Of a stretch of 64,000 nucleotides of DNA, positions 37,001 to 54,684 are shown piece after piece. The translations under genes and the position numbers were made by a program. This DNA comes from Lutibacter sp. A64 (GTDB taxonomy: Bacteria; Bacteroidota; Bacteroidia; Flavobacteriales; Flavobacteriaceae). Numbering within the stretch: the first letter of the stretch is position 1; every line of letters begins with the position of its first letter. The stretch lies in contig NZ_CP092487.1 of assembly GCF_022429565.1 (NCBI RefSeq), forward strand, positions 2,684,001 to 2,748,000, in the 5' to 3' direction. Below the pieces are notes generated by a model that saw nothing but the letters and a program-made list of their open reading frames with translations, had not been told where the DNA came from and made no database searches.

Positions 37001-38599
37001 TTATTCTTCTATTGGTTGATTGATTACCTCAGGGTTTACAATCACAAATTCTGTTCTTCTGTTTAATTGGTGTTCTACTTCTGAACATTTAACGCCATCA
37101 GAACATCTGTTTACCAATTGTGTTTCTCCATAACCTTGTCCTGTTATTCTTGAAGGATCTATACCTTGTGAGATTATCCATTCTACAGATGATTTTGCTC
37201 TTCTGTTTGATAATGCCCAGTTGTATTGGTCTGATGCTCGACTGTCTGTATGAGATCCTGAAGCTATTTTTATATTCGGGTATTTTTTCATTATTTGTAC
37301 CACTTTTGCTAATTCTATTGCAGCATCTGGACGTATAAATGACTTGTCTAAATCAAAGTATATTGGATCTATTTTTACTAATAATCTACCATCTACATTT
37401 ACAAACTCATTAGAATCTAAACTTAAGCCTAATTCCAATTCTAAATCGCGTTCATCTGTGGTTGTAAACACCTCACTATCTTCACTGTAACTTTCTTTTG
37501 TTCCAACAACTTTATATGCTGTTTCACAATCTACTTTAAAACTAAAAGTGGCAAACTTATCGGCTATTACACTTTCTAGTTTTTCTCCTTCTGCATCATA
37601 TAATGTTACTAAAGCTCCTGGTAATAATGCTCCTGATTGTTTTTCACGTACTTGACCTGCTACTAACTGCTCACAAGGTAAAACGCTTTCTGTTGCTTCA
37701 AAATAATAAATATCATCATCTCCGTTTCCTCCGTCTCTATTTGATGAAAAATGTCCCCAATTTTGGCCTGGCTTCTTTACAAATGAAAAATCATCGCCTA
37801 CACTATTTATTGGATATCCTAAGTTTTTTGATGCTGTTAAGGCTCCTTCTTCTTCTATTTGAACTGCATATACATCTAATCCTCCATTGCCTTCAAAATA
37901 ACCATCTGATGAGTAATAAAGCACATTATGCTCGTCTATAAATGGAAACATCTCTTTTCCTGAGGTATTTACATTTGGCCCTAAATTTTGTGGTGTTCCA
38001 TAACTTCCATCTTCATTTATTGCCACTACAAATATATCTGTAGAACCTAATGTGCCTGGCATATCTGATGTAAAATACAACTTGTCTTCTTCTGCATTTA
38101 ACGATGGATGTCCTGTTTGGTAATTATCACTATTAAATGGCATAGGGGTAATATCAGTCCATTCGCCATCTTCACCTACAGTTGCTTTGTATAATTGGAT
38201 TAAAACCCAACCTTCTTCGTCTTTTGTTATCGATTTATTTATATAGTTATTTCTTGAGAAATAAACCGTTTTTAAATCTTTGGTAAAGGCTACGTTAGAT
38301 TCGTGATATTTTGTATTGATTACTTCTGAAAAACGCTCTACATCTATTAATTCTCCTTCTTCGCCTATGGTTCCTTTAAATAATTCTAAATAAGGTTGAT
38401 GGTTGTAATACCAGTTTCTTTTTCTTATTGATTTATCTTTTCGTGATGATGCAAATACGGCTTCATTTTCTCCATAATAGGTTACTCCAAAATCTGCCAA
38501 TTTTGTGTTCTCAGAAATGTTTTTTATGCTATAACTTACTTCTTGTGCATTGATAAACCCTGCACAAAATAATAGTATAAGTAGTGTAATTTTTTTCAT
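37001..38599 (-). CDS. OmpA-family protein with PD40 propeller and C-terminal peptidoglycan-binding domain
   Basis: A 532-residue exported protein (MKKITLLILLFCAGFINAQ). Residues 30-305 show repeated PD40/WD40-like propeller strands (KLYFTSDMPGTLGSTDIFV; NVLYYSSDGYFEGNGG). A carboxypeptidase-regulatory-like Ig domain follows (about 312-385, GALLPGALVTLYD). The C-terminal 120 residues are an OmpA-like peptidoglycan-binding domain: IYFDLDKSFIRPDAA, then SGSHTDSRASDQYNWALS and NRRAKSSVEWI. It should anchor an outer-membrane complex to the cell wall. It is 18 bases downstream of PorP/SprF and closes the giant-adhesin operon, a layout seen at sprB-type loci. Confidence 0.9.
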   Translation of the reverse strand: MKKITLLILLFCAGFINAQEVSYSIKNISENTKLADFGVTYYGENEAVFASSRKDKSIRKRNWYYNHQPYLELFKGTIGEEGELIDVERFSEVINTKYHESNVAFTKDLKTVYFSRNNYINKSITKDEEGWVLIQLYKATVGEDGEWTDITPMPFNSDNYQTGHPSLNAEEDKLYFTSDMPGTLGSTDIFVVAINEDGSYGTPQNLGPNVNTSGKEMFPFIDEHNVLYYSSDGYFEGNGGLDVYAVQIEEEGALTASKNLGYPINSVGDDFSFVKKPGQNWGHFSSNRDGGNGDDDIYYFEATESVLPCEQLVAGQVREKQSGALLPGALVTLYDAEGEKLESVIADKFATFSFKVDCETAYKVVGTKESYSEDSEVFTTTDERDLELELGLSLDSNEFVNVDGRLLVKIDPIYFDLDKSFIRPDAAIELAKVVQIMKKYPNIKIASGSHTDSRASDQYNWALSNRRAKSSVEWIISQGIDPSRITGQGYGETQLVNRCSDGVKCSEVEHQLNRRTEFVIVNPEVINQPIEE

Positions 38600-38617
38600 A
38601 TTTCTGTTTTTTTATTT

Positions 38618-39526
38618 TTAAAAGAATCTTGGACTCTTCAGTTTTTTTCTATTAAAATCAAATAATAAAAGTATTTCATGTGAGCCTGAATTGAAATCTC
38701 CGAATTTTGAAGTTGTATAATCGTAGGCATAACCAACTCTAAAATCGTTATTTACCTGAAAGCCAATCATTCCACTTATAGAATCATCAAACCTATGAGA
38801 CAATCCTAATTCGACACGTTCATCTATTAATAGATTTAGTGATAAATCTACAGATAATGGTGCTCCTGCTGTGGCTTTTAGCATAGTAGATGGCTTTAAT
38901 TTTAAATTGTCTGCAATATCAAACACATAACCTGAAGTCAAGAAATAGTGCATCTTTTCTGAGGCTGTACTTACAATTCCTCCATCTTTTTCTAAGTGAC
39001 GTGTCTCTAAAAAATTTGGTACTGATAATCCTGCATAAAACCTATCTGTATAATAATACACACCGGCTCCAAAATTCGGTGAGGTTTCATGAACTGGTAT
39101 ATTTAATGGGTCTGGATCTATCATTAACAATTCACGTACATCCATAAAAGTAACTCCGGCTTTTAATCCAAACGCCAACCTTCCTGTGCTTGAGGTGAAA
39201 ATTGTATATGAAAAATCTGCATAAACATTATCTTCCTTTACTGGTCCTATTTCATCGTGAATTACGGATAATCCTAATCCTACAGCGCGACCTACTGGAG
39301 AATGCATAGCTAAAGTAAAGGTTTGTGGTGCTCCTTCTACTCCAACCCACTGTGTTCTTCCTAATAATCCTATACTTGTTACTCCTTTTGAGCCTGCATA
39401 GGCCGGGTTTAGTATATTCATATTATACATATACTGAGTATATTGTGGATCTTGCTGTCCAAAAACCGTTGTTAGTGACATTAAGGCGAAAACCCCTAAA
39501 ATTAATCTGAATTTTTTCATAAACAT
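38618..39526 (-). CDS. PorP/SprF family type IX secretion membrane protein
   Basis: A 300-302 residue outer-membrane protein; ATG at 39526 or 39520 (MKKFRLILGVFALMSL). The N-terminal mark DPQYTQYMYNMNILNPAYAGS is diagnostic for the PorP/SprF family, and the rest is beta-barrel strands, ending in FDFNRKKLKSPRFF. In Flavobacterium johnsoniae SprF is needed for export of SprB, a giant adhesin with a type B T9SS tail. Here the upstream giant protein has exactly such a tail, so this is the likely partner. A hairpin at 39544-39576 lies in the 62-base gap between them. Confidence 0.93.
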   Translation of the reverse strand: MFMKKFRLILGVFALMSLTTVFGQQDPQYTQYMYNMNILNPAYAGSKGVTSIGLLGRTQWVGVEGAPQTFTLAMHSPVGRAVGLGLSVIHDEIGPVKEDNVYADFSYTIFTSSTGRLAFGLKAGVTFMDVRELLMIDPDPLNIPVHETSPNFGAGVYYYTDRFYAGLSVPNFLETRHLEKDGGIVSTASEKMHYFLTSGYVFDIADNLKLKPSTMLKATAGAPLSVDLSLNLLIDERVELGLSHRFDDSISGMIGFQVNNDFRVGYAYDYTTSKFGDFNSGSHEILLLFDFNRKKLKSPRFF

Positions 39527-39588: not shown

Positions 39589-42500
39589 TTATTTTCTTAA
39601 ATAAATCCAACCTGTTTGTGGAGCTCTCTTCTTATCATTATCTCCAAAATAAATTGTATAAAAATAAGTTCCTGTTGGAAGTATATCATCAGAGAAGTTC
39701 CATCTTCCTGTTGAGTATCCATCCCACCATGTTGGTACTGTATTAGGGTTGCCATCATGTTTATATTCATAAACTTTATTACCATATCTATTTACAATTT
39801 CCATAGAGAAATTAGGATATAATATCGGTAAAAATGGTATTTCAAATACATCGTTTACTCCATCTCCGTTAGGCGTAAATCCTTCTGGTAATATGTATGA
39901 TATTGGCTCTGTACCAATACAACTTGTATTGTTACTTAAGTCTGGATCTGTTTGATGCATTTCAGTAATTGTTGCACAGTTTAAATACTCTCCTGTTGCA
40001 TTTACTATAACATCAATTAATAATATTTCTGTTTCACCATTCATTATACTTCCAACATTCCATATTCCAGTATTAGGCTCATAAGTACCTTTTGAAGAAC
40101 TATATGTTACAAACTCGTAACCTGAAGGCAATAGATCTTCTACTTCTACTTCAGTACCTTCTATATTACCATCATTAATCAATCTAATTTCAAAAGTAAT
40201 AACTGACTCTTCTAAAGGAGTTATATCATCAGAAACGATTGTTTTTTCAAGTCTTAAATCAAGTTCTTGATATGGTGGTGCAGAAGCACAATCATAATCA
40301 TCTTCAGTAGCATCTCCATTTCCAGGCGTAGAATCGATATCTATTTCATTGGCTGCTGTTATTTCAGCACAATTCACATACTCTCCTGATTCTAATACCT
40401 CAACTTCAATTGATAAAACAGCTGTATTACCAACTTCAATAAAGCCTATATTCCAAATACCAGTGTCTTTATCATAAGTTCCAATTGTCGCGTTCCAAAT
40501 TCCATAATAAGCATATCCAGAAGGAATCACATCAGTAACCTGAACTCCGGTTGCTTCAGTTGGACCTTCATTCGCTACATGTATTTCGAACGTAATCATA
40601 TCTCCAACTTCAAGAAATTCTAAATCTCCAACTACATCTTTTGTTAAACTTAAGTCGATATATGCTGTTGGTACAATTGAAGCACTACCTACGTTATTAG
40701 TAGTATCAGAATCTGTTTGATCTGCAATTAATTCACTTGTTGTGTTTGTAATTGTTTGTCCTAATGTTCCATCATTAACTGTTGCAGTAATGTTTAATGT
40801 TACAGTTGCTCCATTTGCTATAGTTCCAATATTCCATAATCCTGAACCATAATTATAAGCGTCTGTTGAACTACTTACATAAGTAACTCCTACTGGTAAC
40901 TTATCAACTAAACTTACACCAGTTGCATCACTTGGTCCGTTATTAGTAACTGTTATCGTATAAGTAATTGTATCTCCCTCATTTGGTGTTGCATTACTTA
41001 CTGTTTTTACAGTTGCTAAATCTGAACTTGTTACTACAATTGTAGCATTATCATCATCTTCTGTTAAGTTTGCATCTACTTGGTCTTGTGTATTTGACAC
41101 TACATTTGTCAATGTCGTACCTCCTTGATCCATTCCTACAAGTACTTCTAACACAATGCTTTCTTCTTCTCCTGACTCTAGTAAATCTATATTCCAAGTT
41201 GGTGCTGTCCAAACTCCATCACTTGGCATAACATTCGCTGTATAAGTCAAGCCTGCTGGTAAAACATCCGTTACTACTAAGTTGGTAACTTTTGCTGGTC
41301 CATTATTTCTAACGGTTACGGTATAGGTTACTATATCTCCAGCATTTGGTGTTTCATTGTCTACAACCTTAGTTAATACAATATCTGAATAATTTTCAAC
41401 TTTAATAATAGCTTCTAAATCATCTCCTTCTGTTGTTGGGTCAGATTGATCTCCTGTTGCTGCAGTAGTTATATTAGTTATTGTTTCTCCTGTGGTATCT
41501 ACATTAACAGTTGCTGTAATATTTAAGGTTGCTGTTGCCCCATTTGCAATGGCACCAACTGTCCATATTCCTGAACCACTATTATATGCTCCAGATTGAT
41601 CATCACTTACGTAAGTAACTCCTGCTGGCAATAAGTCTGTTAAACTTACACCCGTTGCATCACTTGGTCCATTATTTGTAACTGCTATACTATAAGTAAT
41701 TGTATCTCCTTCATTTGGTGTAGGATCACTTACTGTTTTTACGGTTACAAGATCTGAACTTGTTACTACAATTGTAGCGTTATCATCATCTTCTGTTAAG
41801 TCTGAATCTACTTGGTCTTGTGTATTTGACACGATGTTTGTTAATGTCATACCGCCTTGATCCATTCCTACTAGAGCTTTTATAATTAATGTTTCAAATT
41901 CTCCAGACTCTAATAAATCTACATTCCAATTTGGTGCAGTCCATGTTCCATCACTTGGCATTGCTCCATTTGACACATAAGTCAATCCTGTTGGTAAAGC
42001 ATCAGTTACTACTAAGTTGGTAACTTTTGCTGGTCCATTATTGGTAACTGTAATTTCATAGGTTACAATGTCTCCAACATTTGGTGTTGCATTGTCTACT
42101 ACTTTAGTTAAAACAATGTCTGCATAATTCTCAACTTCAATAGTAGCTTCTAAATCATCTCCTTCTGTTGTTGGATCTGACTGATCTCCTGTTGCTGCTG
42201 TAGTTATATTCGTTATTGTTTCTCCTGCAGTATCAATATCAACTGTAGCTGTAATATTTAAGGTTGCTGTTGCTCCATTTGCAATGGCTCCTATTGTCCA
42301 TATTCCTGAACCACTATTATATGCTCCAGATTGATCATCACTTACATAAGTAACTCCTGCTGGTAATAAGTCTGTTAAACTTACACCCGTTGCATCACTT
42401 GGTCCGTTATTAGTAACTGCTATACTATAAGTAATTGTATCTCCTTCGCTTGGCGTAGCATCACTTACTGTTTTTACTGTTACTAAGTCTGAGCTTGTTA

Positions 42501-45500
42501 CTACAATTGTTTCGCTAGCATCATCTTCTGTTAAGTCTGAATCTACTTGATCTTGTGTGTTTGACACTACATTTGTTAATGTCATTCCTCCTTGATCCAT
42601 TCCTACAACAGCTTCAATTACTATTGTTTCTTCTTCTCCTGATTCTAATAAATCAATGCTCCAGTTTGGTGCTGTCCAAGTTCCATCACTCGGTGAAACA
42701 ATACCATAAGTTAATCCTGTAGGTAAAGCATCTGTTACAACTAAATTGGTAACTTTTGCAGGTCCGTTATTAGTAACTGTTACCGTATAAGTTACGGTAT
42801 CTCCAACATTTGGTGTAGCATTGTCTACTACTTTAGTTAAAACAATGTCTGCATAATTCTCAACTTCAATAGTAGCTTCTAAATCATCTCCTTCTGTTGT
42901 TGGGTCAGATTGATCTCCTGTTGCTGCTGTAGTTATATTCGTTATTGTTTCTCCTGCAGTATCAATATCAACTGTAGCTGTAATATTTAAGGTTACTGTT
43001 GCTCCATTTGCAATGGCACCAACTGTCCATATTCCTGAACCACTATTATATGCTCCAGATTGATCATCACTTACGTAAGTAACTCCTGCTGGTAATAAGT
43101 CTGTTAAACTTACACCCGTCGCATCACTTGGTCCGTTATTTGTAACTGCTATACTATAAATAATGGTATCTCCTTCACTTGGCGTAGCATCACTTACTGT
43201 TTTTACTGTTACTAAGTCTGAACTTGTTACTACAATTGTTTCTCTATCATCATCTTCTGTTAAGTCTGAATCTACTTGGTCTTGTGTATTTGACACGATG
43301 TTTGTTAATGTCATACCGCCTTGATCCATTCCTACTAGAGCTTTTATAATTAATGTTTCAAATTCTCCAGACTCTAATAAATCTACATTCCAATTTGGTG
43401 CAGTCCATGTTCCATCACTTGGCATTGCTCCATTTGACACATAAGTCAATCCTGCTGGTAAAGCATCAGTTACTACTAAATTGGTAACTTTTGCTGGTCC
43501 ATTATTGGTAACTGTAATTTCATAGGTTACAATATCTCCAACATTTGGTGTTGCATTGTCTACTACTTTAGTTAAAACAATGTCTGCATAATTCTCAACG
43601 TCAATAAAAGCGTCTAAATCATCTTCAGGAAACCCTTCAGTTGTTGTATCTGGATCTGTTTGATCACCTGATGCTGCAGTTGTTACATTAGTTATTCTTT
43701 GTCCTGAGGTATCTTCATCAACTGTTGCTACAATATTTAAAGTTACCGTTTCATCAACATTAATACTTCCAATCATCCAGTTTCCGTCACCACTATTGTA
43801 CGCACCTGACTGATTATCTTCCACATAGGTAACACCTGCTGGTAATAAATCTACAAGGCTCACATTTGTCGCAATACTTGGTCCATAATTAGTAACTGCT
43901 ATTGAGTAAGTAATGGTCTCTCCTTCTACTGGAGTTAGATTACTTACCGTTTTTATTGTTACTAAATCTGAACTAGTTACTGTTATAGCTTCTTCTAAAT
44001 CATCTCCTACATCTGTAGGATCAATTTCAGTTAATGAAATATCTGTAATTCTATTTGTAATTGCTGTTTGATCATAAGTTCCAGTAGCTACTACTAAAGC
44101 ATCAATCTCTATTGATACCGATGTAGCATTTTCTATAGCTCCTATATTCCATATTCCTGTTCCAGCATCATAAGTATTAACTGAACCTCCTATTGGTCTA
44201 GCTTCAACAAATGTTAATCCTGCTGGTAATATATCCGTAATTACAACATTAGATGCATCACTTGGACCATTATTTATAACATTAATAGTATATGTGATAG
44301 TATCTCCCTGATTAGGATTGTTATCATTAACTACTTTTGTTGTTACTAAATCTGCAATTGCTTGTGGTACTGGTGTTACTTCATCAAAATCATCTTCTTC
44401 TGGGTTATTATTACCAGGAATAGATGTTGGATCATTTTGATCTAATGCAGTTACTTCTGCTGTATTTCTATAATCTCCCGTTGCATTTACAAGAGCTTCA
44501 AGCGTTAAAATAACACTATCACCACTTGTTACTATATCTATATTCCAAGATCCAGAACCTTCGTCATAAGTAACTCCAGAAGGTAGTGGTCCTACATCAA
44601 CAAATGTATATCCTGTTGGTAAATAATCTACAACATTTACTGTTGTAGCGTCATTTAAACCTTCATTTTCTAATGTAATAGTAAATATTACATTATCTCC
44701 TACATTAGGAGTTGGATTATCAACTGTTTTTTCTAAAATTAAATCTGCAAACTCTTCAACCTCTACAGTTACAACAGCAATATCACAATTTGCTGGGTTT
44801 AACACCTCACATATTTGATATTCTATTGTATAAACTCCACCTGTTGTACCTGCTGGCACACTAATATTTCCAGTTGTTGGATCTACTACAGGAATATTTC
44901 CACCATTAATTGAAGTTGCAGGCGTAAGTACTGTTATAGTAACTTCATTTTCTAATGCTGCTACCCCGTTAATTGTATCTGGCCCTTCTCCATTATCCAA
45001 TAATACATTTCCAGCATATGGGTTTCCATTATAACCATCTACATTTCCAATAGTATCATCTATTGCAACTATTGGTGATGGTACAACCTTAACAATTACG
45101 TTTGCGTCATCACAATTACTAGGATTTAACTCCTCACAAATTGTATATGGTATTGTGTAAACCGCTGCTGGTGTTCCTTCAGGTACAATTACTGTTCCTG
45201 TTGTTTCATCAATATAAGGAAGTGGTCCTGCCACGACTGCTACATCTGGCACTGCTGGTGAAGCTGTTATATTTACAGCATCAACATCTACCGCAACTCC
45301 ATTTAAAGTATCTGGTCCTGCTCCATTATCTTCAAGAATATTTCCAACATTAGGATTTCCATCTAAACTATTTACATCATTTAAAGGGTCTGCTGAAAAA
45401 TCATCAACTACAGCATCAATTTCAGGAACTATAACATCTACTGTTACAACTGCATTATCACAATTGGTTGGATTTAATACTTCACAAATTTTGTATTCTA

Positions 45501-48500
45501 AAGTATACTGTCCAGCTGGTGTTCCTGGCGCTACATCTACCGTTCCATCTCCATTTAAGGTAAGTGCACCTTGTGGATCTGCTGTTACTAATGTTAACGT
45601 AATTTCTGAAGGATCAGAATCAGCTAAAATAGCAACCGTATTTAAGGTGTCTTCGCCATTTTCATTATCATTAAAAACATTCAATACTCCTACTTCACCT
45701 TCTAATCCATTTACTGAATTTCCATCTGCTAATATATAATCATCATTATTAGCAACAATTGGTGGTGCTTCTACTCGTACTCGAATAAAGTCTGTATCAC
45801 AATTTGTTGGGTTTAAAACCTCACAAATGCTATATTCAATTTCATAATCATCTGCTGGTGTTCCTGGCAGAACACTAATAGATCCAGTTAAAGGATCTAA
45901 TACTGGCACTGGTGCTCCTGCTATTGGTGTTGCTGGTGTTATTACACTAATTATTACATCTCCTATATCAGTTCCAACAGTTGCTGAAGATCCATTTAAT
46001 TGATCTTCACCTGCTCCATTATCAGCTAATACATTTCCAACATTTGTATTTCCATCTGCTCCATTCACTGGACTTGCTAAGAAATCATCTAACTGAGCAT
46101 CAATTGTGGTTGCACCAACTTGGATTGTAGCGACTGCTGAATCACAATTTGTTAATGGATTTAAAGCATCACATATAGTATATGGGAAATAATAAGTTCC
46201 TTCTGGTGTTTCTGGATCTACTGTAATAATCCCTGTTTCATCATCCATGGTAAATCCACCTGATGTAGTTGTTGGCGCTGTTCCAGGTGTTAAAACAACA
46301 TTTCCTGTAGTAGGTGTTGCATCTGCTGGATTACCATTTAAAGTATCCAAACCAGCTCCATTATCAACCAATACACTTACTGTATCACCTCCTACAGCAC
46401 CATTAATTACGGTATCTGTAAAATCATCATCAACAGCGTTAATTACTGGCGGGTCAACTGTTATTGTTACAACAGCTGTATCACAATTTCCTGGTGTTGG
46501 AGGTGCTGTTGTATTTAAATTTTCACATATTGTATAACTAACCGTATAAACCCCTGCTGGTGTATTTGCAGGAATTGATACATCTCCTGTGGCTTCATCT
46601 ATTACTGGAACTATTCCTGTTGCTGGTACTGATGTGCCAGTTCCAGGATCAAACATCATACCCGGAATTAGATCTATGGTAACTTCTGAAACATCAGTAG
46701 CTAAGCCATCTAAGGTATCATAACCATCATCATTATCTTCTAATATATTTCCAGCATTTGGATTTCCATCTAAGCCATTTCCACCTACAATTAGATCATC
46801 TTGTGCTATTATAGAAACCTCTCCTACAAGTACCGTTACTATTGCTGTATCGCAATTTCCTGGTGTTGGAGGTGTTGTTGTATTTAGATTATCACAAATT
46901 GAATATGTTATTTCATAAGTTCCTGCTGGTGTTCCTGGTGGTACACTTACATTACCTGTAGTTGGATCTACTTCAGGAACTAGTCCTCCTAACGATACGG
47001 CTGGCGTTACTACTGTTATAGTAACATCTCCAGTTAAGGCTTGACCTCCATTTAAAGTATCAACACCTGAACCTGTATTACTTGTTAAAACATTACCTAC
47101 TAAAGGATCTCCTTCAGCTCCATTAACTTTTGCTGTTCCTCCTAAACTAAAATCATCATCTTGTGCTAATATGAATGGTAAAGCAACCTTAACTTTTATT
47201 GTTGCCTCATCACTACAGTTACCAGGGTTTAATTCCTCACAAATATTATAAACAATTTCATAATCACCTGCAGGTGTTCCTGGTGGTACACTTACAATTC
47301 CAGTTGTTGGATCAACTTCTGGAACTGGTGCCCCTCCTATTGATGTTGCTTCTGTAACTATTGTTATATCAACCTCATCTATTTCTGCGGGTTCTCCGTT
47401 TAAAGTATCTGCTCCAGATCCATTATCGCTAAAAATATTTCCAAGGTTTGGATTTCCTTCAAAACCATTTACTGGAGTTGCTGAAAAATCATCATCTTGA
47501 TCTAAAATTGGGGCTTCTACTACCTCTACAGTAACAGTTGCTGATTCACAATTTGTTGGATTTAATACTTCACAAATTTTATATACCAATGTATATGTTC
47601 CTGCTGGTGTATTTGGCGCAACATCTACCGTTCCATCTCCATTTAAAGTTATTGCATTTTCTGAATCTTCAGCTACTAATGTTAATGTAACTTCTGATGG
47701 ATCTGCATCATCTAAAATACCAATACCATTTAAGGTGTCTGGACCATCTTCATTATCATTGAAAACATTCAATACTCCTGCAGCACCTTCTAAACCATTT
47801 ATACCTCCTACAGCATCATCTTCAGCAATTATCTCTGCTGCTGGAACTGTTATTAAAACAAAGTCTGTATCACAATTTGTTGGGTTTAACACCTCGCAAA
47901 TTCTATACTCAATTTCGTAATCACCTGCTGGTGTAAATGGAGACACCGTAACTTCTCCTGTAGCTGTATCTACAGTTGGGACTAATCCTCCTCCTATAGA
48001 TGTTGCAGGTGTTACAATACTTATTTTTACATCTCCTAAATCGGTACCTACAGTTGCTTGAGTTCCATTTAAAGTATCTTCTGCTCCTGGCGTAGAATCA
48101 GTTAATACATTTCCTAAATTTGCTCCAACATAACCATCAATAACAACAGTTGTGTAATCATCAACTTGTGCATCTATAACGGCAGGTTCAACTACTATTG
48201 TTGCTATTGCTGAATCACAATTTGTTGGATTACCATTTTCACATATAGTATAAGGATAATAATAGGTTCCTGCAGTAGTATTTGATGCTACCACAATTTC
48301 ACCTGTAGTAGTATTCATTGTTATACTACCATTATCTGGTGTTGGTGCTGTACCTGGTGTAAGAACAACATTTCCTGATGGTGTTGCATCTACTAGACCA
48401 AAATTAAATGAATCTTCTCCTGGTGTATAAGTTAGCACACTTGGTGTTGTACCTCCATCTGTACTATTAATAGGTGTTACTGAAAAATCATCATCAACAG

Positions 48501-51500
48501 CATCAATTACTGGTGCTGCAAATTCTATATTTACCGATGCTTCATCAGTATTACCTTCACTATCCGCTATTGTATATTCAATATCTGTAGGGTCTCCTAA
48601 AAATGTTGATAATGCTGTAAACGTTAATGATCCTGCTCCATCATACTCCCAAGTTCCTTCACCTGGAATAAAAACTGAGTAACCATTTGTTCCTGGTGTT
48701 CCTGAAATATCCACTGATGGATACGTAATTCCTGAAGAACCAAACACAAAAGTGTCATCCTCTACTACATCTCCTAAGGTATCGTTTGAAGTTATATCTA
48801 AAATTACAGGACTTCCCACTGGGTTTCCTAAACTTTCATCATCTGCAGCTTCTGGTGCATAATCTATTATTACTGTGGCATCATTTGAAACATTACCATC
48901 ATTATCTTTTATATTATATTCTATTGGTGTTGGATCTTCCGTAAAACCTGTTAATGGTGTAAAGGTTATTTCTCCTGTTGTTCCATCAACATGCCAGTTT
49001 CCTTCTCCGGTTACATCAAAGTTTATAAGCTCTCCTGCAGGATCATAGCTAGCACCTGTTATTGAGACAGATGGTATTACTAAACTTACTGTTGTGGCAT
49101 CTAATGTGCCATCTGAATCTGAATCTGCTGTAGTTGGATTTGCAATTAATGGGTTTACATCTACAGCTCCCTGTGCATGACCTAATCCTCCATTATCACT
49201 TAAATCATCTACTGCAACTGGTGGTATTGGAGTATAAATAATTGTAACCAGTGATGCATTTGAAATATTTAAGTCATTATCATATACCGTATAACTAATT
49301 GGTGTTGGATTTGCTGTGAAATTATCCGCAAATCCTCCTGAAATTGTTTTTGGTGTAAAAGTAATAGCTCCTGTTGTAGCATTCACTATCCAAACACCTT
49401 CTCCCGGAACTGTAACTTCAACACAGTCTCCATCAGTATCTGTATCAGTACACGTTGAACCGCTTGGTAAACCAGTAGTATATAATGAAACTCTTTCAGG
49501 TAATAAAGAGCCATCTGGATCATAATCTGCTGTTCCAGTTCCTGCTAACACATCTACTTCAACATCTAAAAGTGTTGTATTTCCAGTACTTTCATCATCA
49601 TAAGTGATAGGTGGGTTATTAATAGATGTACTAGAAGATGCTGCTGCCAATACGTTACCATTTGGGTCATCTGCTTCAAAAGTAGCTTCGTTATCTCCAG
49701 GACACGGACTAGCCAGTTCTACTAAAATTTGAACAATTATTTGTTCTCCTGGTTTTAATATTCCGGAATTATTATCAAAAATATCTGTATCTCCGGTAGA
49801 TAAACCATTATAATTTAAATTAATATTTGGATTTTGAGTTGCAGATGACGAAACTATTTGAGGAGTCCCAACATGTATTACATTTGATGCACCACAAATA
49901 GCACTAAGTTCATCTGAAACTTTCAAATTCTCTACTTCAACAGTAGATAAAAATAAATTTCTTAATTCTAATTGAAAAAGAACATCTCTATTACCTTCAG
50001 TACCACTAGCTGCAGGTACATCGCTTATAGTAGTTTTGTCTAAAGTAAGGAAAACACTGTAATCAAAAGACATACTTTGTGAATCACAAAGACATTGATC
50101 AGTAGAAGATGTTACATCTGTAGGAGAATTTATTATACTACCCTCACTTCCATTGTAATACCTATCTACATGTACACCTTTAGAATCTTCCCATTCAACA
50201 TATGTAAGTGCATTAGGTGTCGCAGAATTTCCTTCATCAACACCATCAGCTGCTCCTTTTGACATAGCAGTACCGATAGTTTCAAAACCTCTTGAAACAC
50301 CAAGATCTTGTGTTGGTCCTACATTATAATCTATTCTTAAGACTACATTTTCACCTGCTGGCAATATTGTATTTGGTGCTAAAATTCCTTTTTGAGTACC
50401 ATCACCATTATACGATGTATTTAATTTTCCTGCTATAGGTGCATAACCAGATATAAAATTAACAACAGCAGTATTTATTGTATTTGGATCAGCAACAGAT
50501 GCATGGATAAATTGTTCCCACGGCAAGTAATATTGAACATTAGTTGCATCTGCACCTGCAACTGGCGTAGGATAACCTTGATTACTATCATTAGTTAATG
50601 TTACATAAATACTAAAATCATAAGTTCCATCAGCTTTTACTGGAGGCGAAGTAACTGGTATAAACATTTTTGCAGCAACATTTGCTTCAGTTGAATGGAA
50701 ATCCTTAATTTCAACACTAGATGTTATTCCTGTATTAATATTAGAATCTACACTAATTAAATTTGTAAAATTTACATCACCAGAATTTGCAAGTGATGTT
50801 ATACCCTCTCCTATTCCACCTCCATCATCAGCATAACGTGGATCTATATAAACACAATACGAAAAATCAATTACCTGTCGTGGTCGTAATATATTACTTG
50901 CTACTGAAGCTGGAAGAAAAACCCCACTTGCACCAGGTGTTGTGTTTACATTACCAGTTGGAGATGTACCTAATAGATCTTCTTGAGGCACAAAACCAGA
51001 AGATGTAAAATCCACATCTGAATTATCCCAATCTAAGTTTGCATGGTCCCAAATTCCTGCAGTTCCCCCTAAATTAGAAGTGTCACCAACTCTATTTCTA
51101 GTAGAAAAAATTACATTTTCTATACCAACAATTGCATTGTTAGCTGTGGAACCATTTGCAAAAATTGCAACTAAATCATTTGTTAATTGGATATTTGTAA
51201 TAGCATCTTCATAACTTGGGTTAGCAATAGAACCTGTATATTCTATTTTATATAATCCATTTGGATATTCTGTTGATGGTGGTATATTACCTGCATTACA
51301 ACTAGTAAGAGTTGTTATTTGATCTTTAGCAGCATCTTTTATATCTACTATTATATCAAAACTAGCAGTATCTATTAAATCTCCATCTGTAATTGTATAT
51401 GTAATAGTAACTTTAGTTCCTGGAGCTACACCTGTAACATTTAATTCTATATTTCCAGCGTTATATATTACTGTACCTGCTGAAGCATATAGTTCTGAAG

Positions 51501-52068
51501 GATTAGTTAGCAATGTAATAGGATCTCCATCAGGATCAGAATCATTAACTAACAAAGTAGCTTCTGTTGTTATTATACCATTAAAATCTTCTTCAACATA
51601 AATTAAAGCATCGTCTTCAGCAACTGGAGCAATATTTGTAATATTAATAGTTGCTGTTGCTTCTCCTAATATGGTTACTGGTGTTACAGAATCATCAATT
51701 TCATAAGTAAACGTTAACGGTGTACTTAAATTTCCAGATGTTAACATTGTAACTACTCCAAATTCGTTAATTTCATATGTATTCCCCCCTGCATCTATAA
51801 GAGGTATTATACCACCTGAAACTATTGGAGTACCATTTACACTTTTTAAAACAGGTGTATTAGCCGAATCATCATTAGTTAAAATATTACCAATAACAAC
51901 AGGAGAAGCAGCCACATGACTTACATTAAATATTTCGTCATTTGCAGCAATTTCTACAACATTTATTTCAACTGTAGGTGTACCGTTGCTATTTGCTGCA
52001 CCATCATTTGCATTATAAGTAAAGGTAATGACATCTCCAACTACATTACTAATAGCATCATAAGTAAA
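39589..52068 (-). CDS. Giant T9SS type B adhesin, main part (C-terminal of a frameshifted gene)
   Basis: The frame is open from 52068; the GTG at 51915 is not a credible start because the real N-terminus lies in the upstream fragment (52041-52895). Together they would make about 4,435 residues. From N to C in whole-protein numbering (approximate): cadherin/VCBS-like repeats to 520; a unique region 520-1095; three CshA-type fibril repeats 1095-1455; 11 repeats of about 114 residues ending in a CEVLNPTNC-type motif 1455-2715; 13 DUF11 domains 2715-4325; then a type B T9SS sorting domain (PEGFTPNGDGVNDVFEIP ... GWIYLRK). It should be a surface fibre or adhesin of the SprB type, secreted with the help of PorP/SprF. 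DUF11 copies 5-9 are near-identical at DNA level. Confidence 0.85.
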   Translation of the reverse strand, partial: FTYDAISNVVGDVITFTYNANDGAANSNGTPTVEINVVEIAANDEIFNVSHVAASPVVIGNILTNDDSANTPVLKSVNGTPIVSGGIIPLIDAGGNTYEINEFGVVTMLTSGNLSTPLTFTYEIDDSVTPVTILGEATATINITNIAPVAEDDALIYVEEDFNGIITTEATLLVNDSDPDGDPITLLTNPSELYASAGTVIYNAGNIELNVTGVAPGTKVTITYTITDGDLIDTASFDIIVDIKDAAKDQITTLTSCNAGNIPPSTEYPNGLYKIEYTGSIANPSYEDAITNIQLTNDLVAIFANGSTANNAIVGIENVIFSTRNRVGDTSNLGGTAGIWDHANLDWDNSDVDFTSSGFVPQEDLLGTSPTGNVNTTPGASGVFLPASVASNILRPRQVIDFSYCVYIDPRYADDGGGIGEGITSLANSGDVNFTNLISVDSNINTGITSSVEIKDFHSTEANVAAKMFIPVTSPPVKADGTYDFSIYVTLTNDSNQGYPTPVAGADATNVQYYLPWEQFIHASVADPNTINTAVVNFISGYAPIAGKLNTSYNGDGTQKGILAPNTILPAGENVVLRIDYNVGPTQDLGVSRGFETIGTAMSKGAADGVDEGNSATPNALTYVEWEDSKGVHVDRYYNGSEGSIINSPTDVTSSTDQCLCDSQSMSFDYSVFLTLDKTTISDVPAASGTEGNRDVLFQLELRNLFLSTVEVENLKVSDELSAICGASNVIHVGTPQIVSSSATQNPNINLNYNGLSTGDTDIFDNNSGILKPGEQIIVQILVELASPCPGDNEATFEADDPNGNVLAAASSSTSINNPPITYDDESTGNTTLLDVEVDVLAGTGTADYDPDGSLLPERVSLYTTGLPSGSTCTDTDTDGDCVEVTVPGEGVWIVNATTGAITFTPKTISGGFADNFTANPTPISYTVYDNDLNISNASLVTIIYTPIPPVAVDDLSDNGGLGHAQGAVDVNPLIANPTTADSDSDGTLDATTVSLVIPSVSITGASYDPAGELINFDVTGEGNWHVDGTTGEITFTPLTGFTEDPTPIEYNIKDNDGNVSNDATVIIDYAPEAADDESLGNPVGSPVILDITSNDTLGDVVEDDTFVFGSSGITYPSVDISGTPGTNGYSVFIPGEGTWEYDGAGSLTFTALSTFLGDPTDIEYTIADSEGNTDEASVNIEFAAPVIDAVDDDFSVTPINSTDGGTTPSVLTYTPGEDSFNFGLVDATPSGNVVLTPGTAPTPDNGSITMNTTTGEIVVASNTTAGTYYYPYTICENGNPTNCDSAIATIVVEPAVIDAQVDDYTTVVIDGYVGANLGNVLTDSTPGAEDTLNGTQATVGTDLGDVKISIVTPATSIGGGLVPTVDTATGEVTVSPFTPAGDYEIEYRICEVLNPTNCDTDFVLITVPAAEIIAEDDAVGGINGLEGAAGVLNVFNDNEDGPDTLNGIGILDDADPSEVTLTLVAEDSENAITLNGDGTVDVAPNTPAGTYTLVYKICEVLNPTNCESATVTVEVVEAPILDQDDDFSATPVNGFEGNPNLGNIFSDNGSGADTLNGEPAEIDEVDITIVTEATSIGGAPVPEVDPTTGIVSVPPGTPAGDYEIVYNICEELNPGNCSDEATIKVKVALPFILAQDDDFSLGGTAKVNGAEGDPLVGNVLTSNTGSGVDTLNGGQALTGDVTITVVTPAVSLGGLVPEVDPTTGNVSVPPGTPAGTYEITYSICDNLNTTTPPTPGNCDTAIVTVLVGEVSIIAQDDLIVGGNGLDGNPNAGNILEDNDDGYDTLDGLATDVSEVTIDLIPGMMFDPGTGTSVPATGIVPVIDEATGDVSIPANTPAGVYTVSYTICENLNTTAPPTPGNCDTAVVTITVDPPVINAVDDDFTDTVINGAVGGDTVSVLVDNGAGLDTLNGNPADATPTTGNVVLTPGTAPTTTSGGFTMDDETGIITVDPETPEGTYYFPYTICDALNPLTNCDSAVATIQVGATTIDAQLDDFLASPVNGADGNTNVGNVLADNGAGEDQLNGSSATVGTDIGDVIISVITPATPIAGAPVPVLDPLTGSISVLPGTPADDYEIEYSICEVLNPTNCDTDFIRVRVEAPPIVANNDDYILADGNSVNGLEGEVGVLNVFNDNENGEDTLNTVAILADSDPSEITLTLVTADPQGALTLNGDGTVDVAPGTPAGQYTLEYKICEVLNPTNCDNAVVTVDVIVPEIDAVVDDFSADPLNDVNSLDGNPNVGNILEDNGAGPDTLNGVAVDVDAVNITASPAVPDVAVVAGPLPYIDETTGTVIVPEGTPAAVYTIPYTICEELNPSNCDDANVIVKVVPSPIVAIDDTIGNVDGYNGNPYAGNVLLDNGEGPDTINGVAALENEVTITVLTPATSINGGNIPVVDPTTGNISVPAGTTGGVYTIEYQICEVLNPANCDIAVVTVEVEEFADLILEKTVDNPTPNVGDNVIFTITLENEGLNDATTVNVVDYLPTGYTFVDVGPLPSGVTYDEGSGSWNIDIVTSGDSVILTLEALVNATGDYRNTAEVTALDQNDPTSIPGNNNPEEDDFDEVTPVPQAIADLVTTKVVNDNNPNQGDTITYTINVINNGPSDASNVVITDILPAGLTFVEARPIGGSVNTYDAGTGIWNIGAIENATSVSIEIDALVVATGTYDQTAITNRITDISLTEIDPTDVGDDLEEAITVTSSDLVTIKTVSNLTPVEGETITYSIAVTNYGPSIATNVSLVDLLPAGVTYVEDNQSGAYNSGDGNWMIGSINVDETVTLNIVATVDEDTSGQRITNVTTAASGDQTDPDTTTEGFPEDDLDAFIDVENYADIVLTKVVDNATPNVGDIVTYEITVTNNGPAKVTNLVVTDALPAGLTYVSNGAMPSDGTWTAPNWNVDLLESGEFETLIIKALVGMDQGGMTLTNIVSNTQDQVDSDLTEDDDRETIVVTSSDLVTVKTVSDATPSEGDTIIYSIAVTNNGPSDATGVSLTDLLPAGVTYVSDDQSGAYNSGSGIWTVGAIANGATVTLNITATVDIDTAGETITNITTAATGDQSDPTTEGDDLEATIEVENYADIVLTKVVDNATPNVGDTVTYTVTVTNNGPAKVTNLVVTDALPTGLTYGIVSPSDGTWTAPNWSIDLLESGEEETIVIEAVVGMDQGGMTLTNVVSNTQDQVDSDLTEDDASETIVVTSSDLVTVKTVSDATPSEGDTITYSIAVTNNGPSDATGVSLTDLLPAGVTYVSDDQSGAYNSGSGIWTIGAIANGATATLNITATVDIDTAGETITNITTAATGDQSDPTTEGDDLEATIEVENYADIVLTKVVDNATPNVGDIVTYEITVTNNGPAKVTNLVVTDALPTGLTYVSNGAMPSDGTWTAPNWNVDLLESGEFETLIIKALVGMDQGGMTLTNIVSNTQDQVDSDLTEDDDNATIVVTSSDLVTVKTVSDPTPNEGDTITYSIAVTNNGPSDATGVSLTDLLPAGVTYVSDDQSGAYNSGSGIWTVGAIANGATATLNITATVNVDTTGETITNITTAATGDQSDPTTEGDDLEAIIKVENYSDIVLTKVVDNETPNAGDIVTYTVTVRNNGPAKVTNLVVTDVLPAGLTYTANVMPSDGVWTAPTWNIDLLESGEEESIVLEVLVGMDQGGTTLTNVVSNTQDQVDANLTEDDDNATIVVTSSDLATVKTVSNATPNEGDTITYTITVTNNGPSDATGVSLVDKLPVGVTYVSSSTDAYNYGSGLWNIGTIANGATVTLNITATVNDGTLGQTITNTTSELIADQTDSDTTNNVGSASIVPTAYIDLSLTKDVVGDLEFLEVGDMITFEIHVANEGPTEATGVQVTDVIPSGYAYYGIWNATIGTYDKDTGIWNIGFIEVGNTAVLSIEVEVLESGEYVNCAEITAANEIDIDSTPGNGDATEDDYDCASAPPYQELDLRLEKTIVSDDITPLEESVITFEIRLINDGNIEGTEVEVEDLLPSGYEFVTYSSSKGTYEPNTGIWNVGSIMNGETEILLIDVIVNATGEYLNCATITEMHQTDPDLSNNTSCIGTEPISYILPEGFTPNGDGVNDVFEIPFLPILYPNFSMEIVNRYGNKVYEYKHDGNPNTVPTWWDGYSTGRWNFSDDILPTGTYFYTIYFGDNDKKRAPQTGWIYLRK
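41000..43980 (-). repeat. Near-identical tandem repeats encoding DUF11 domain pairs
   Basis: The pair SDLVTVKTVSD.../ADIVLTKVVDNATP... recurs with a DNA period of 729 and 735 bases (for example the actttagttaaaacaatgtc stretch at 42101, 42830 and 43565). Long stretches are identical between copies, suggesting recent duplication or gene conversion and a site prone to recombination or assembly collapse. Confidence 0.8.
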
Positions 52069-52895
52069 CTACCATTTGAAGCTAAAGATACACTTCCAGA
52101 AGCTAAAACAGCTGTAAGCGCATCTAAATCCGTATCAGTGTCATTTATTAAAACACCATCTGAAGCCGCTACATTTAAAGTTTTACCTTCAACAACATAA
52201 TAGGGCCCATCTATATTTGCAACAGGTCTAATATTTGTAAATCTTACCCTTAATCTAGCCGTATCGGTATTTGTACCATCTGAAATATTATAATTATAAT
52301 CAACTCTACCATTTACTGCATTATTTAATCCAGAAGCCTGAACCGTAACATCTCCATTACTGGTAATTGTAATTAAATTACCATTACCATCATCTAGTAA
52401 GTTAACAGGGTTTGTTACCGTAGTAGAAGCCGCAAAAGAATCATTATCAAGTACATTCCCTAAATATATAGGATCAGTTTGAGTATGACTAATACTATAT
52501 GTATCATTATTAGCTAAAATACCCGCAACAACGTCAAAAGTTAAAACAGCAATGTCAAACTCCCCTGCTGGATTCACTGCTACATAGTCAATTGTTACAG
52601 TAGTACCTGGAGCTACTCCTGTTGCATCATAAGTATAAACTCCATTAGAATTCATAGTAATAACTCCTTCCGAAGCTATTGCATTAGGCACTATAAGTGA
52701 AGAACCAATATCATTACCTAAAACATTTCCGGACATACTTGCATTTTCAGCAATTGAAATAGGACCATCATCATTTGCCGTCACCTGAGCATGTGCCTTA
52801 TTATTAACAAGACAAATTACCGCTAACAATAATATAACTATTGTCCTTTTTAATTTGTTTCCGGATTTTTTTTTTGCAGCGTAATTTTTTTCCAT
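52041..52895 (-). CDS. N-terminal fragment of the giant adhesin (frameshifted)
   Basis: A 284-residue frame with signal peptide (TIVILLLAVICLVNNKAHAQ) followed by cadherin/VCBS-like repeats (VTANDDGPISIAENASM, then SNGVYTYDATGVAPGTTV). It ends out of frame in SNGSLLMMLLVM. Adding one T to the run at 52066-52068 restores SNGSFTYDAISNVVGDVITF, which has the same NGxYTYDA pattern as the previous repeat, and continues into the main frame. The two pieces are therefore one gene with a one-base deletion: mutation, phase-variable tract or sequencing error. It starts at 52895 after a 450-base upstream region. Confidence 0.85.
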   Translation of the reverse strand: MEKNYAAKKKSGNKLKRTIVILLLAVICLVNNKAHAQVTANDDGPISIAENASMSGNVLGNDIGSSLIVPNAIASEGVITMNSNGVYTYDATGVAPGTTVTIDYVAVNPAGEFDIAVLTFDVVAGILANNDTYSISHTQTDPIYLGNVLDNDSFAASTTVTNPVNLLDDGNGNLITITSNGDVTVQASGLNNAVNGRVDYNYNISDGTNTDTARLRVRFTNIRPVANIDGPYYVVEGKTLNVAASDGVLINDTDTDLDALTAVLASGSVSLASNGSLLMMLLVM

Positions 52896-53346: not shown

Positions 53347-54684
53347 CTATTCAATTGCCACTAAAATTTCACTTAAAAAAGTATCTAAATTAAAATCTGG
53401 ATGCTCAGTCAAACCAAACTTAACAACAACAACATCTTTTGAAGGAATTATAAACACATGCTGCCCTTGATAACCGTTACAAGAAAACAAATCTTTTGGT
53501 ACATTCGAATATACACCTCCAGCATTTAACCAAAATTGCGCTCCATATCTCCCATTTGAAGTATTAGTAGGAGTTTTGGTATAATCTACCCAAGATTTAT
53601 TTAATATCTGCTCCCCATTCCAATTCCCTTCATTTAAATATAAAAGTCCAAATTTTGCCCAATCGCGCGCAGTAGCCCAACCATAAGAAGAAGCAATATA
53701 ATTTCCTGAAATATCGGTTTCAATTACCATAGAATTCATTCCAATTTTATCTATTAGTTCTGCATACCAGAAATCTAAATATTCTTGGTGTGTTTTAAAC
53801 TGATTTCTAATAAATCCAGAAAGTAAGTTTGTAGTTCCAGAAGAATAATTCCAACTTTCGTTAGGTTTACTTTTTAAAGGTTTTTCAAGTTGTATTTTAG
53901 TCATATCTTCAGCTAAAAACAACATCTTTGTAACATCTGAAATAGTATTGTAATCTTCAACCCACTCCAAACCACTATTCATTTGCAATAAATTATTTAA
54001 CGAAATCTTTGAACGTTCGTCATTTTCCCATTCCGGAAATAAATTGGTAGTATTTACATTAATTTTACCTTGTTTTTCCAAAATACCTAAAACAGCACTT
54101 GCAATACTTTTTGTCATAGACCAACCCAATAATTTTGTTTCATTTGTAAATCCAGGTGCATATTTTTCTGCAATTATCTGGTTTTTATAAATTACTACAA
54201 CCGCACGTGTTCTTTTAATGGTATCCTCTGGTTTATCAAAAGCATTAGCTACAGCAGTATTTAAAGCCTTATAATTTACATTATTAAATAAAGTATCTTT
54301 TTGAGGTAAATTTCCATAAGGATATGGTAAATTTTTAGTTGTAATTTTTCTATTAGGCTTAAATTTCACATTTTCATTTCCCTTTGGAAGCAATACACAA
54401 CCAACACCCTCTTTATATATTGCCTTTCTTGGTTTTAACCCAAACACTGTTGACGTAACTGATTTCTCTTCATTATTAATAGTATTTTTAGCCAAATTTA
54501 TTGGGCTAAATCCGTTATCCCCAACCTCAATTGAAGCTAAATCTCTACCAGCTTCAAACGTACAAGAACAAACGCTTTTTGCTGAAAAACCAGTAATTAT
54601 ATTTAAACGCGAATAATTAAAAATTATAACAGCAATAATTATAATTAGCAAAGGAAGTATTCCAAATTTTAGTATTTTTTTCAT
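53347..54684 (-). CDS. Serine hydrolase, beta-lactamase/esterase family
   Basis: A 445-residue protein of the class C beta-lactamase-like serine hydrolase family. The nucleophile motif is SMTKSIASAVLG (SxxK), the tyrosine motif is YSSGTTN (YxS-like) and HVFIIPSKDVVVVKFG is the late strand. An N-terminal hydrophobic segment (ILPLLIIIIAVIIFNY) makes it membrane-anchored or secreted. The N-terminal 110 residues before the domain are unlike the typical enzyme. Activity could be esterase or peptidase; beta-lactamase action is not implied. It is divergent from the TetR gene, 104 bases away. Confidence 0.87.
   Translation of the reverse strand: MKKILKFGILPLLIIIIAVIIFNYSRLNIITGFSAKSVCSCTFEAGRDLASIEVGDNGFSPINLAKNTINNEEKSVTSTVFGLKPRKAIYKEGVGCVLLPKGNENVKFKPNRKITTKNLPYPYGNLPQKDTLFNNVNYKALNTAVANAFDKPEDTIKRTRAVVVIYKNQIIAEKYAPGFTNETKLLGWSMTKSIASAVLGILEKQGKINVNTTNLFPEWENDERSKISLNNLLQMNSGLEWVEDYNTISDVTKMLFLAEDMTKIQLEKPLKSKPNESWNYSSGTTNLLSGFIRNQFKTHQEYLDFWYAELIDKIGMNSMVIETDISGNYIASSYGWATARDWAKFGLLYLNEGNWNGEQILNKSWVDYTKTPTNTSNGRYGAQFWLNAGGVYSNVPKDLFSCNGYQGQHVFIIPSKDVVVVKFGLTEHPDFNLDTFLSEILVAIE

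What the first reader, a model, noticed from the sequence alone, without database searches (positions are those of the whole stretch)
52041..52895. One-base deletion splits the giant surface-adhesin gene
The fragment at 52041-52895 and the main frame 39589-52068 fit as one gene if one T is added to the minus-strand run at 52066-52068. The corrected sequence SNGSFTYDAISNVV matches the NGxYTYDA repeat pattern seen in the fragment itself. The adhesin of about 4,435 residues would then be complete, with signal peptide and T9SS type B tail. The cause could be a sequencing or assembly error, a strain-specific loss of function, or slippage phase variation.
Basis: seen in the sequence. Interest (0 to 1): 0.7.

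Follow-up and report, generated by a model that had tools for sequence, protein, structure and literature searches.

The report
Giant surface protein gene, recently broken
A bacterium's gene for a giant protein that should sit on the cell surface is split by one recent frame change, and the same gene is broken in a different way in its nearest relative, which points to repeated loss of a dispensable surface protein rather than to a built-in switch.

Summary
An N-terminal ORF (52041-52895, -, 284 aa) and a 4,159-codon frame (39589-52068, -) are two parts of one gene. An internal repeat pins the frame change to within about one codon of 52071-52068, and five related species carry a homologous gene uninterrupted with a similar leader. 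It ends in a T9SS type B sorting domain and is followed by PorP/SprF and OmpA/PorE-like genes. The PorP/SprF has no cysteine, so this is probably a static adhesin, not the gliding adhesin.

Slippage and recoding are not supported: the site is an ordinary three-base run without a slippery heptamer. The lesion is recent (no further stop in 12.5 kb: at most about 0.6% neutral divergence, against dS 0.4-0.9 to the sister species). The sister's copy is broken too, by an in-frame stop elsewhere, as is its largest shuttle-linked type B gene. Among 448 and 445 compared ORFs two internal breaks were found, both in this genome.

Best reading: a recent strain-level null in a repeatedly lost surface protein. 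A base error is the main rival and needs reads. Side result: an inverted paralogous locus shares a homogenised sprF/ompA, and adhesin 3' ends have changed places.

The parts
52041..52895 (-). N-terminal piece of the adhesin gene: leader plus cadherin-like domains, 284 aa, ends just after the frame break
   Evidence: PF17803, residues 212-277; leader like those of relatives
39589..52068 (-). Main frame, 4,159 codons: Ig-like and CshA-like repeats, 13 DUF11 stretches, type B sorting domain
52041..52071 (-). Zone of the frame break; overlap of the two frames; no slippery heptamer
39598..39888 (-). T9SS type B C-terminal sorting domain (TIGR04131 / CHU_C)
38618..39526 (-). PorP/SprF-family shuttle, no cysteine; DNA-identical to the copy at the inverted paralogous locus
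37001..38599 (-). OmpA-domain, PorE-like protein of the same module
   Evidence: CHU_0125 and PorE models match below their cut-offs
52866..52875 (-). Run of ten A in the leader codons, the longest homopolymer of the gene; in frame here
51913..51915 (-). First possible start codon (GTG) of the main frame; would give a protein without the leader
53347..54684 (-). Beta-lactamase-fold gene upstream, used as synteny marker

Best explanation
This is one gene for a giant type B T9SS surface protein, probably a static adhesin held by its own PorP/SprF barrel and a PorE/OmpA-like protein. Its frame is broken once, near codon 276. The break is most likely a real, recent, strain-level null mutation. Translation would stop shortly after the break, so the cell would make only an exported fragment without the sorting domain, and the surface protein would be lost (inferred). 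The same gene and one other giant type B gene were broken independently in the sister species, so loss of such proteins appears to recur, perhaps under laboratory passage or phage pressure (inferred, not shown).
For: Frames, repeat alignment and leader show one gene. The homologous gene is uninterrupted in G006, G007, G003 and G009 (with the same upstream marker gene) and in G037. The sister G026's gene is broken by an in-frame stop at 2432097-2432099 with 2,595 codons open behind it, and its roughly 11,000-codon type B gene by an in-frame stop at 2415274-2415276. Recency: no other stop in 12,477 bases bounds neutral divergence since the break at about 0.58%, against dS 0.42-0.86 between the sisters in sprF and ompA. 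Control in the fetched stretches: 2 internal breaks in G000 among 448 G026 ORFs compared with it, 0 in G026 among 445 the other way. Over both genomes 3 of 5 breaks fall in the 12 shuttle-linked type B genes (about 15% of the bases; post hoc P about 0.025). The T9SS translocon SprA is present without internal stop.
Against: No reads and no second strain of the species were available, so an assembly error cannot be ruled out. One of the two other breaks in G000 is in an eight-A run, a context typical of sequencing error. The enrichment test is small, post hoc and rests on stretches, not whole genomes. In nine other genomes 0 of 17 evaluable shuttle-linked genes were broken, so recurrence is shown only in the two sisters; those nine are drafts in which the longest repeat genes often end at contig ends.
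Confidence: 0.55

Rival explanations
1. The frame break is a base error of the assembly; the strain carries an intact gene.
For: A single one-base event in a short run; another G000 gene has a break in an eight-A run, which may be an error too; no reads available.
Against: Only 2 internal breaks in 448 compared ORFs (172,079 residues), which gives about 0.05 expected in a gene this size. The sister's two copies are broken by in-frame stops, unlikely as errors when 0 of 445 other ORFs show one. The site is not a long homopolymer.
Confidence: 0.35
2. Slippage phase variation: the gene is switched off and on by gain and loss of a base at this site.
For: The frame behind the break is fully maintained; the gene encodes a surface protein, a usual class of phase-variable gene (recalled).
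Against: The site is a three-base run; the gene has 156 runs of exactly three T and 50 of exactly four. The sister is broken elsewhere by an in-frame stop. The longest tract (A10; A9 in the sister) is in the leader and in frame in both.
Confidence: 0.04
3. Programmed frameshifting joins the two frames during translation.
For: Both frames are open and overlap by 28 bases.
Against: No canonical slippery heptamer near the break; the arrangement is not conserved: five relatives have one frame and the sister has a different lesion.
Confidence: 0.02
4. The main frame is an independent gene started at GTG 51915, and the 284-aa ORF a separate exported protein.
For: A start codon exists at 51915.
Against: The product would lack the leader. 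In five relatives leader and type B tail lie in one frame. The repeat runs across the break.
Confidence: 0.03

Closest known systems
Fjoh_3952 / Fjoh_3951 / Fjoh_3950 operon of Flavobacterium johnsoniae (type B substrate, PorP/SprF-like shuttle, PorE-like protein); PMC12618676, passages seen
   Same: Gene order type B substrate, PorP/SprF-like shuttle, OmpA/PorE-like gene.
   Different: Here the substrate gene is broken, and shuttle and OmpA genes are duplicated at an inverted locus. Orthology to Fjoh genes was not tested.
SprB / SprF gliding adhesin pair of F. johnsoniae (PMC12635249 and PMC9143113, passages seen)
   Same: Giant repetitive type B protein with a downstream PorP/SprF gene.
   Different: The SprF here has no cysteine, so lacks the C-tail CxC that links SprF to the gliding track, and a PorE-like gene lies next to it, unlike sprF of F. 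johnsoniae.
PG1035 / PorP / PorE complex of Porphyromonas gingivalis (PMC9143113, passages seen)
   Same: Type B protein, PorP barrel and PorE, proposed to anchor to the cell wall.
   Different: The P0004 match to the PorE model is below its cut-off (278.9 of 600 bits).
Inverted 10-kb adhesin - PorP/SprF - outer membrane protein repeats of F. psychrophilum, with a roughly 1.9-Mb inversion between isolates (PMC5808330, passage seen)
   Same: Two inverted copies of the same three-gene kind of module in one chromosome.
   Different: Here the upstream neighbour of locus a and the immediate neighbours of locus b are the same in both complete genomes, while the adhesin 3' ends have changed places; downstream of locus a the two genomes differ (another type B module lies there in G026). 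No inversion between isolates was seen or testable.

Membership tests
T9SS type B CTD surface protein | C-terminal TIGR04131 / CHU_C domain | tested here: met
   TIGR04131 35.9 bits (cut-off 35), PF13585 72.6 bits (cut-off 27); also (42.5 bits)
T9SS type B CTD surface protein | Sec leader at the N-terminus | tested here: inconclusive
   Basic and hydrophobic leader similar to relatives by alignment; no signal-peptide predictor was run; in this assembly the leader lies in another frame than the CTD
T9SS type B CTD surface protein | PorP/SprF shuttle gene directly downstream | tested here: met
   PF11751 295.1 bits, TIGR03519 269.8 bits, 38618-39526
T9SS type B CTD surface protein | Shuttle-dependent secretion | not testable with these tools
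   needs a bench assay
Gliding (track-linked) SprB/SprF pair | CxC motif in the C-tail of SprF | tested here: not met
   P0003 has no cysteine; 0 of the 7 PorP/SprF-family matches in G000 (E up to 0.001) has CxC
Slippage phase-variable (contingency) gene | Repeat or homopolymer tract at the switching site | tested here: not met
   three-base run at the break; the longest tract (A10) is elsewhere and in frame
Slippage phase-variable (contingency) gene | Tract length varies between clones | not testable with these tools
   no reads, no second strain
Programmed -1 frameshift gene | Slippery heptamer in the overlap | tested here: not met
Programmed -1 frameshift gene | Same arrangement conserved in relatives | tested here: not met
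Recent pseudogene | Single disabling lesion, frame otherwise intact | tested here: met
Recent pseudogene | Lesion confirmed by independent reads | not testable with these tools
   no reads held

The most novel reading that the evidence does not exclude
The two inverted loci (a in the window, b at 3.376-3.394 Mb) form an adhesin-shuffling pair. A near-identical sprF-ompA module and DUF11 arrays let the loci recombine, exchanging adhesin 3' ends, while individual adhesins are from time to time switched off by point lesions and could be rebuilt by exchange with the other locus, so that a broken gene serves as a silent donor rather than as a dead end.
Probability: 0.1. Interest if true: 0.6.

Novelty: new member of a known kind. 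Interest (0 to 1): 0.3.

Why it matters
If the break is real, two sister species have each recently lost the same giant surface protein by different mutations, and one of them has also lost its largest shuttle-linked type B protein. Sequenced strains of such bacteria would then be a poor guide to their natural surface, and selection against these proteins (handling or phage, not shown) could be tested. The inverted, partly homogenised pair of loci is a concrete place to test adhesin shuffling outside Flavobacterium psychrophilum. If the break is an error, the value is a corrected annotation.

Tried and rejected
Orthologues by the N-terminal piece alone: 2 of 38 genomes of the genus matched P0001 (the own genome, and a 65-residue match in G026), because the ectodomain is not conserved; synteny and the shuttle gene were used instead. 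The genome-contig scan gave one irrelevant locus, a 44-residue match in a gammaproteobacterial MAG. Organism name: not found. A search for the two genome lengths as numbers held 42 papers, of which the 10 listed are unrelated by title; a structure search with another window protein returned nothing. I recall the gene content as looking like a genus such as Polaribacter; no call supports that name. Rescue of the frame by slippage at the A10 tract was rejected because the main frame is closed by a stop directly upstream of 52068. A smaller first run of the break control (170 and 167 ORFs compared) was replaced. Two searches for flanking genes showed that the gene downstream of the module differs between species; I drew no conclusion from them.

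Literature: six searches were seen as listings; six papers were seen as passages found by term; none was read whole. PMC7345892 passages say that phage resistance in F. columnare goes with non-gliding colonies; that is the only basis here for the phage idea. The PMC8400371 passages held nothing on broken adhesins. I make no claim that such breaks are unreported.

Rows dropped before the survey count of 29 genes (26 uninterrupted, 3 broken): stretches with N runs (L088, L090, L091; G013 and G028), contig ends (L078, L085; the G008 and G020 copies; L086, L089, L092 fetched but not analysed), G019 (a 1,135-aa ORF without sorting domain, then decayed sequence and a separate gene), and PorP-like genes with no adhesin upstream. 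The survey covers only a part of the PorP/SprF hits, from 11 of 38 genomes. In the nine genomes other than G000 and G026 the genes were taken as type B by their place before PorP/SprF; the sorting domain was scanned only in G000 and G026.

Full report
What is there. The window is positions 2,684,001-2,748,000 of a single-contig 4.03-Mb chromosome. On the minus strand lie an N-terminal ORF (52041-52895, 284 aa) and a main frame (39589-52068, 4,159 codons stop to stop; first start GTG 51915). Pfam and NCBIfam find cadherin-like domains in the first piece. In the main frame they find CshA-like and Ig-like repeats, 13 DUF11 stretches, CHU_C and the T9SS type B sorting domain TIGR04131. Directly downstream are a PorP/SprF gene and an OmpA-domain gene that resembles PorE below the model's cut-off.

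One gene. The first residues of the main frame repeat residues 87 onward of the first piece (E 1e-21 in a one-sequence search; E 2e-10 in the genome search). The start of the first piece resembles the leaders of adhesins upstream of PorP/SprF in G026, G006, G037, G003, G007, G009 and G028. In G006 (2,820 aa), G007 (4,109), G003 (4,915), G009 (4,503) and G037 (4,969) leader and type B tail lie in one frame. The first four have the same beta-lactamase-fold gene upstream; in G037 that gene lies on another contig. The frame change is therefore inside one gene, within about a codon of 52071-52068.

Not a switch, not recoding. The site is a three-base T run; the gene holds 156 runs of exactly three T and 50 of exactly four. 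The longest homopolymer is A10 in the leader (52866-52875), in frame; the sister has A9 there, also in frame, and the longest A run in the first 96 bases of five other relatives is 4 to 8. No slippery heptamer lies near the break. The arrangement is not conserved.

Recent. No further stop occurs in the 12,477 bases behind the break. With 4.14% of single-base changes giving a stop, this bounds neutral divergence since the break at about 0.58%. The sister species differs at dS 0.42-0.86 in sprF and ompA, and omega over the last 1,300 codons of the two locus-a adhesins is 0.21 (1,150 codons aligned). That last comparison mixes paralogous ends, because of the exchange described below, so it is only a rough sign of past selection on the protein.

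The sister species. G026 has a gene at the same place (similar leader; beta-lactamase-fold gene upstream; sprF and ompA downstream) with a largely different ectodomain. It is broken by an in-frame stop after 1,617 codons, and 2,595 codons remain open behind it. Its largest shuttle-linked type B gene is broken too, by an in-frame stop after 2,031 codons (counted from the previous stop) with 8,965 open behind; the G000 counterpart is open over 10,083 codons.

Control for errors. In the fetched stretches I compared 448 of 540 G026 ORFs with G000 (172,079 residues) and 445 of 575 G000 ORFs with G026 (166,541 residues); the rest had no match over at least 70% of their length at 70% identity. Internal breaks: in G000 one frameshift at an eight-A run of a TPR-histidine kinase gene and one stop in a rhodanese-like gene; in G026 none. 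The other flagged rows, eight in G000 and three in G026, I set aside: stops within about the first 22 or last six residues, plus one short ORF antisense to the giant gene. Breaks that close to gene ends were thus not counted. Among shuttle-linked genes 3 of 12 are broken in the two sisters and 0 of 17 evaluable ones in nine other genomes. With 3 of 5 breaks in about 15% of the bases the binomial P is 0.025. This is post hoc, and the compared ORFs may include some intact type B genes.

How it would work. From the literature (passages of PMC9143113, PMC12635249 and PMC12618676): type B proteins reach the surface by the T9SS, leave it on a PorP/SprF barrel, usually their own, and stay bound to it. 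Gliding SprF has a C-tail CxC that binds the track; [quoted passage not shown] The PorP/SprF here has no cysteine and has a PorE-like neighbour, so I infer a static adhesin. The translocon SprA is present (2,565 bits, no stop inside). In the strain as assembled, translation would end shortly after the break. The first piece has a leader but no sorting domain; the main frame has a sorting domain but no leader. Loss of the surface protein is inferred, not shown.

The paralogous locus. G000 and G026 each have a second, inverted locus (b; in G000 3,375,993-3,394,157) with an uninterrupted adhesin of 5,195 or 4,006 aa. The sprF genes of a and b differ at 0 of 302 codons in each genome but at dS 0.86 between genomes; ompA a/b dS is 0.003 in G000 and 0.135 in G026, against 0.42-0.48 between genomes. 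This is concerted evolution. The adhesin 3' ends have changed places: over the last 1,200 bp G000 a is 88.1% identical to G026 b and G000 b is 85.5% identical to G026 a, against 60.9% (a-a) and 59.9% (b-b). In trees of the last 110 residues and last 330 bp, G000 a and G026 b group with support 1.0, and the genes of five other species lie outside that group, which suggests that the exchange happened in the G000 lineage. The trees do not resolve G000 b with G026 a as a pair, so that half rests on identity alone. The loci lie on either side of the lowest cumulative GC skew in the 564 kb examined (about 2.92 Mb; perhaps the origin, inferred) and point away from it. In F. psychrophilum inverted adhesin - PorP/SprF - outer membrane protein repeats flank a 1.9-Mb inversion (PMC5808330, passage). 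Whether the exchange here came from inversions or from conversion is open. It has no shown link with the break, which lies in the unshared ectodomain.

Verdict. The most likely cause is a recent null mutation in a surface protein that is lost repeatedly. An assembly error is the main rival, at about one in three. Phase variation at this site is unlikely. Scored as ordinary to moderately interesting.

Noticed in passing
window 37001-39526 and G000:C1:3391644-3394157 (L027): sprF and ompA of the window locus are nearly identical to an inverted second locus about 0.65 Mb away; sprF a and b are identical within each of two species while dS is 0.86 between the species (concerted evolution).
   Followed up: yes
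window 39589-41800; G000 b, G026 a and b 3' ends: The 3' ends of the two adhesin genes have changed places between the loci, apparently in the G000 lineage.
   Followed up: partly
G026:C1:2415274-2415276: The largest shuttle-linked type B gene of the sister species (about 11,000 codons) is interrupted by one in-frame stop; the G000 counterpart is open over 10,083 codons.
   Followed up: partly
window 52866-52875: Run of ten A in the leader codons (nine in the sister); if the gene ever phase-varies, this is the likelier site.
   Followed up: partly
G000:C1:3113200 and 3184425-3184859 (L109, L112): Two other broken genes: a TPR-histidine kinase with a frame change at an eight-A run, and a rhodanese-like gene with an internal stop.
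   Followed up: partly
G026:C1:2385404-2421369: The giant type B module lies directly next to locus a in G026 but about 0.35 Mb away in G000, a rearrangement close to the adhesin loci.
   Followed up: no
L041 (G019:C129:165555-172698): At a comparable position G019 has a DUF11-like ORF of 1,135 aa without sorting domain, then decayed sequence, then a separate gene upstream of PorP/SprF.
   Followed up: partly
G000:C1:3538109-3538243, G026:C1:1978687-1978821: Open frames of about 8,586 codons with a sub-cut-off partial match to the type B sorting domain in both sisters.
   Followed up: no
G026:C1:3155450-3157435 (L031): Three open frames of 150-186 codons antisense to the repeat region of the locus b adhesin, probably a by-product of its codon composition.
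   Followed up: no
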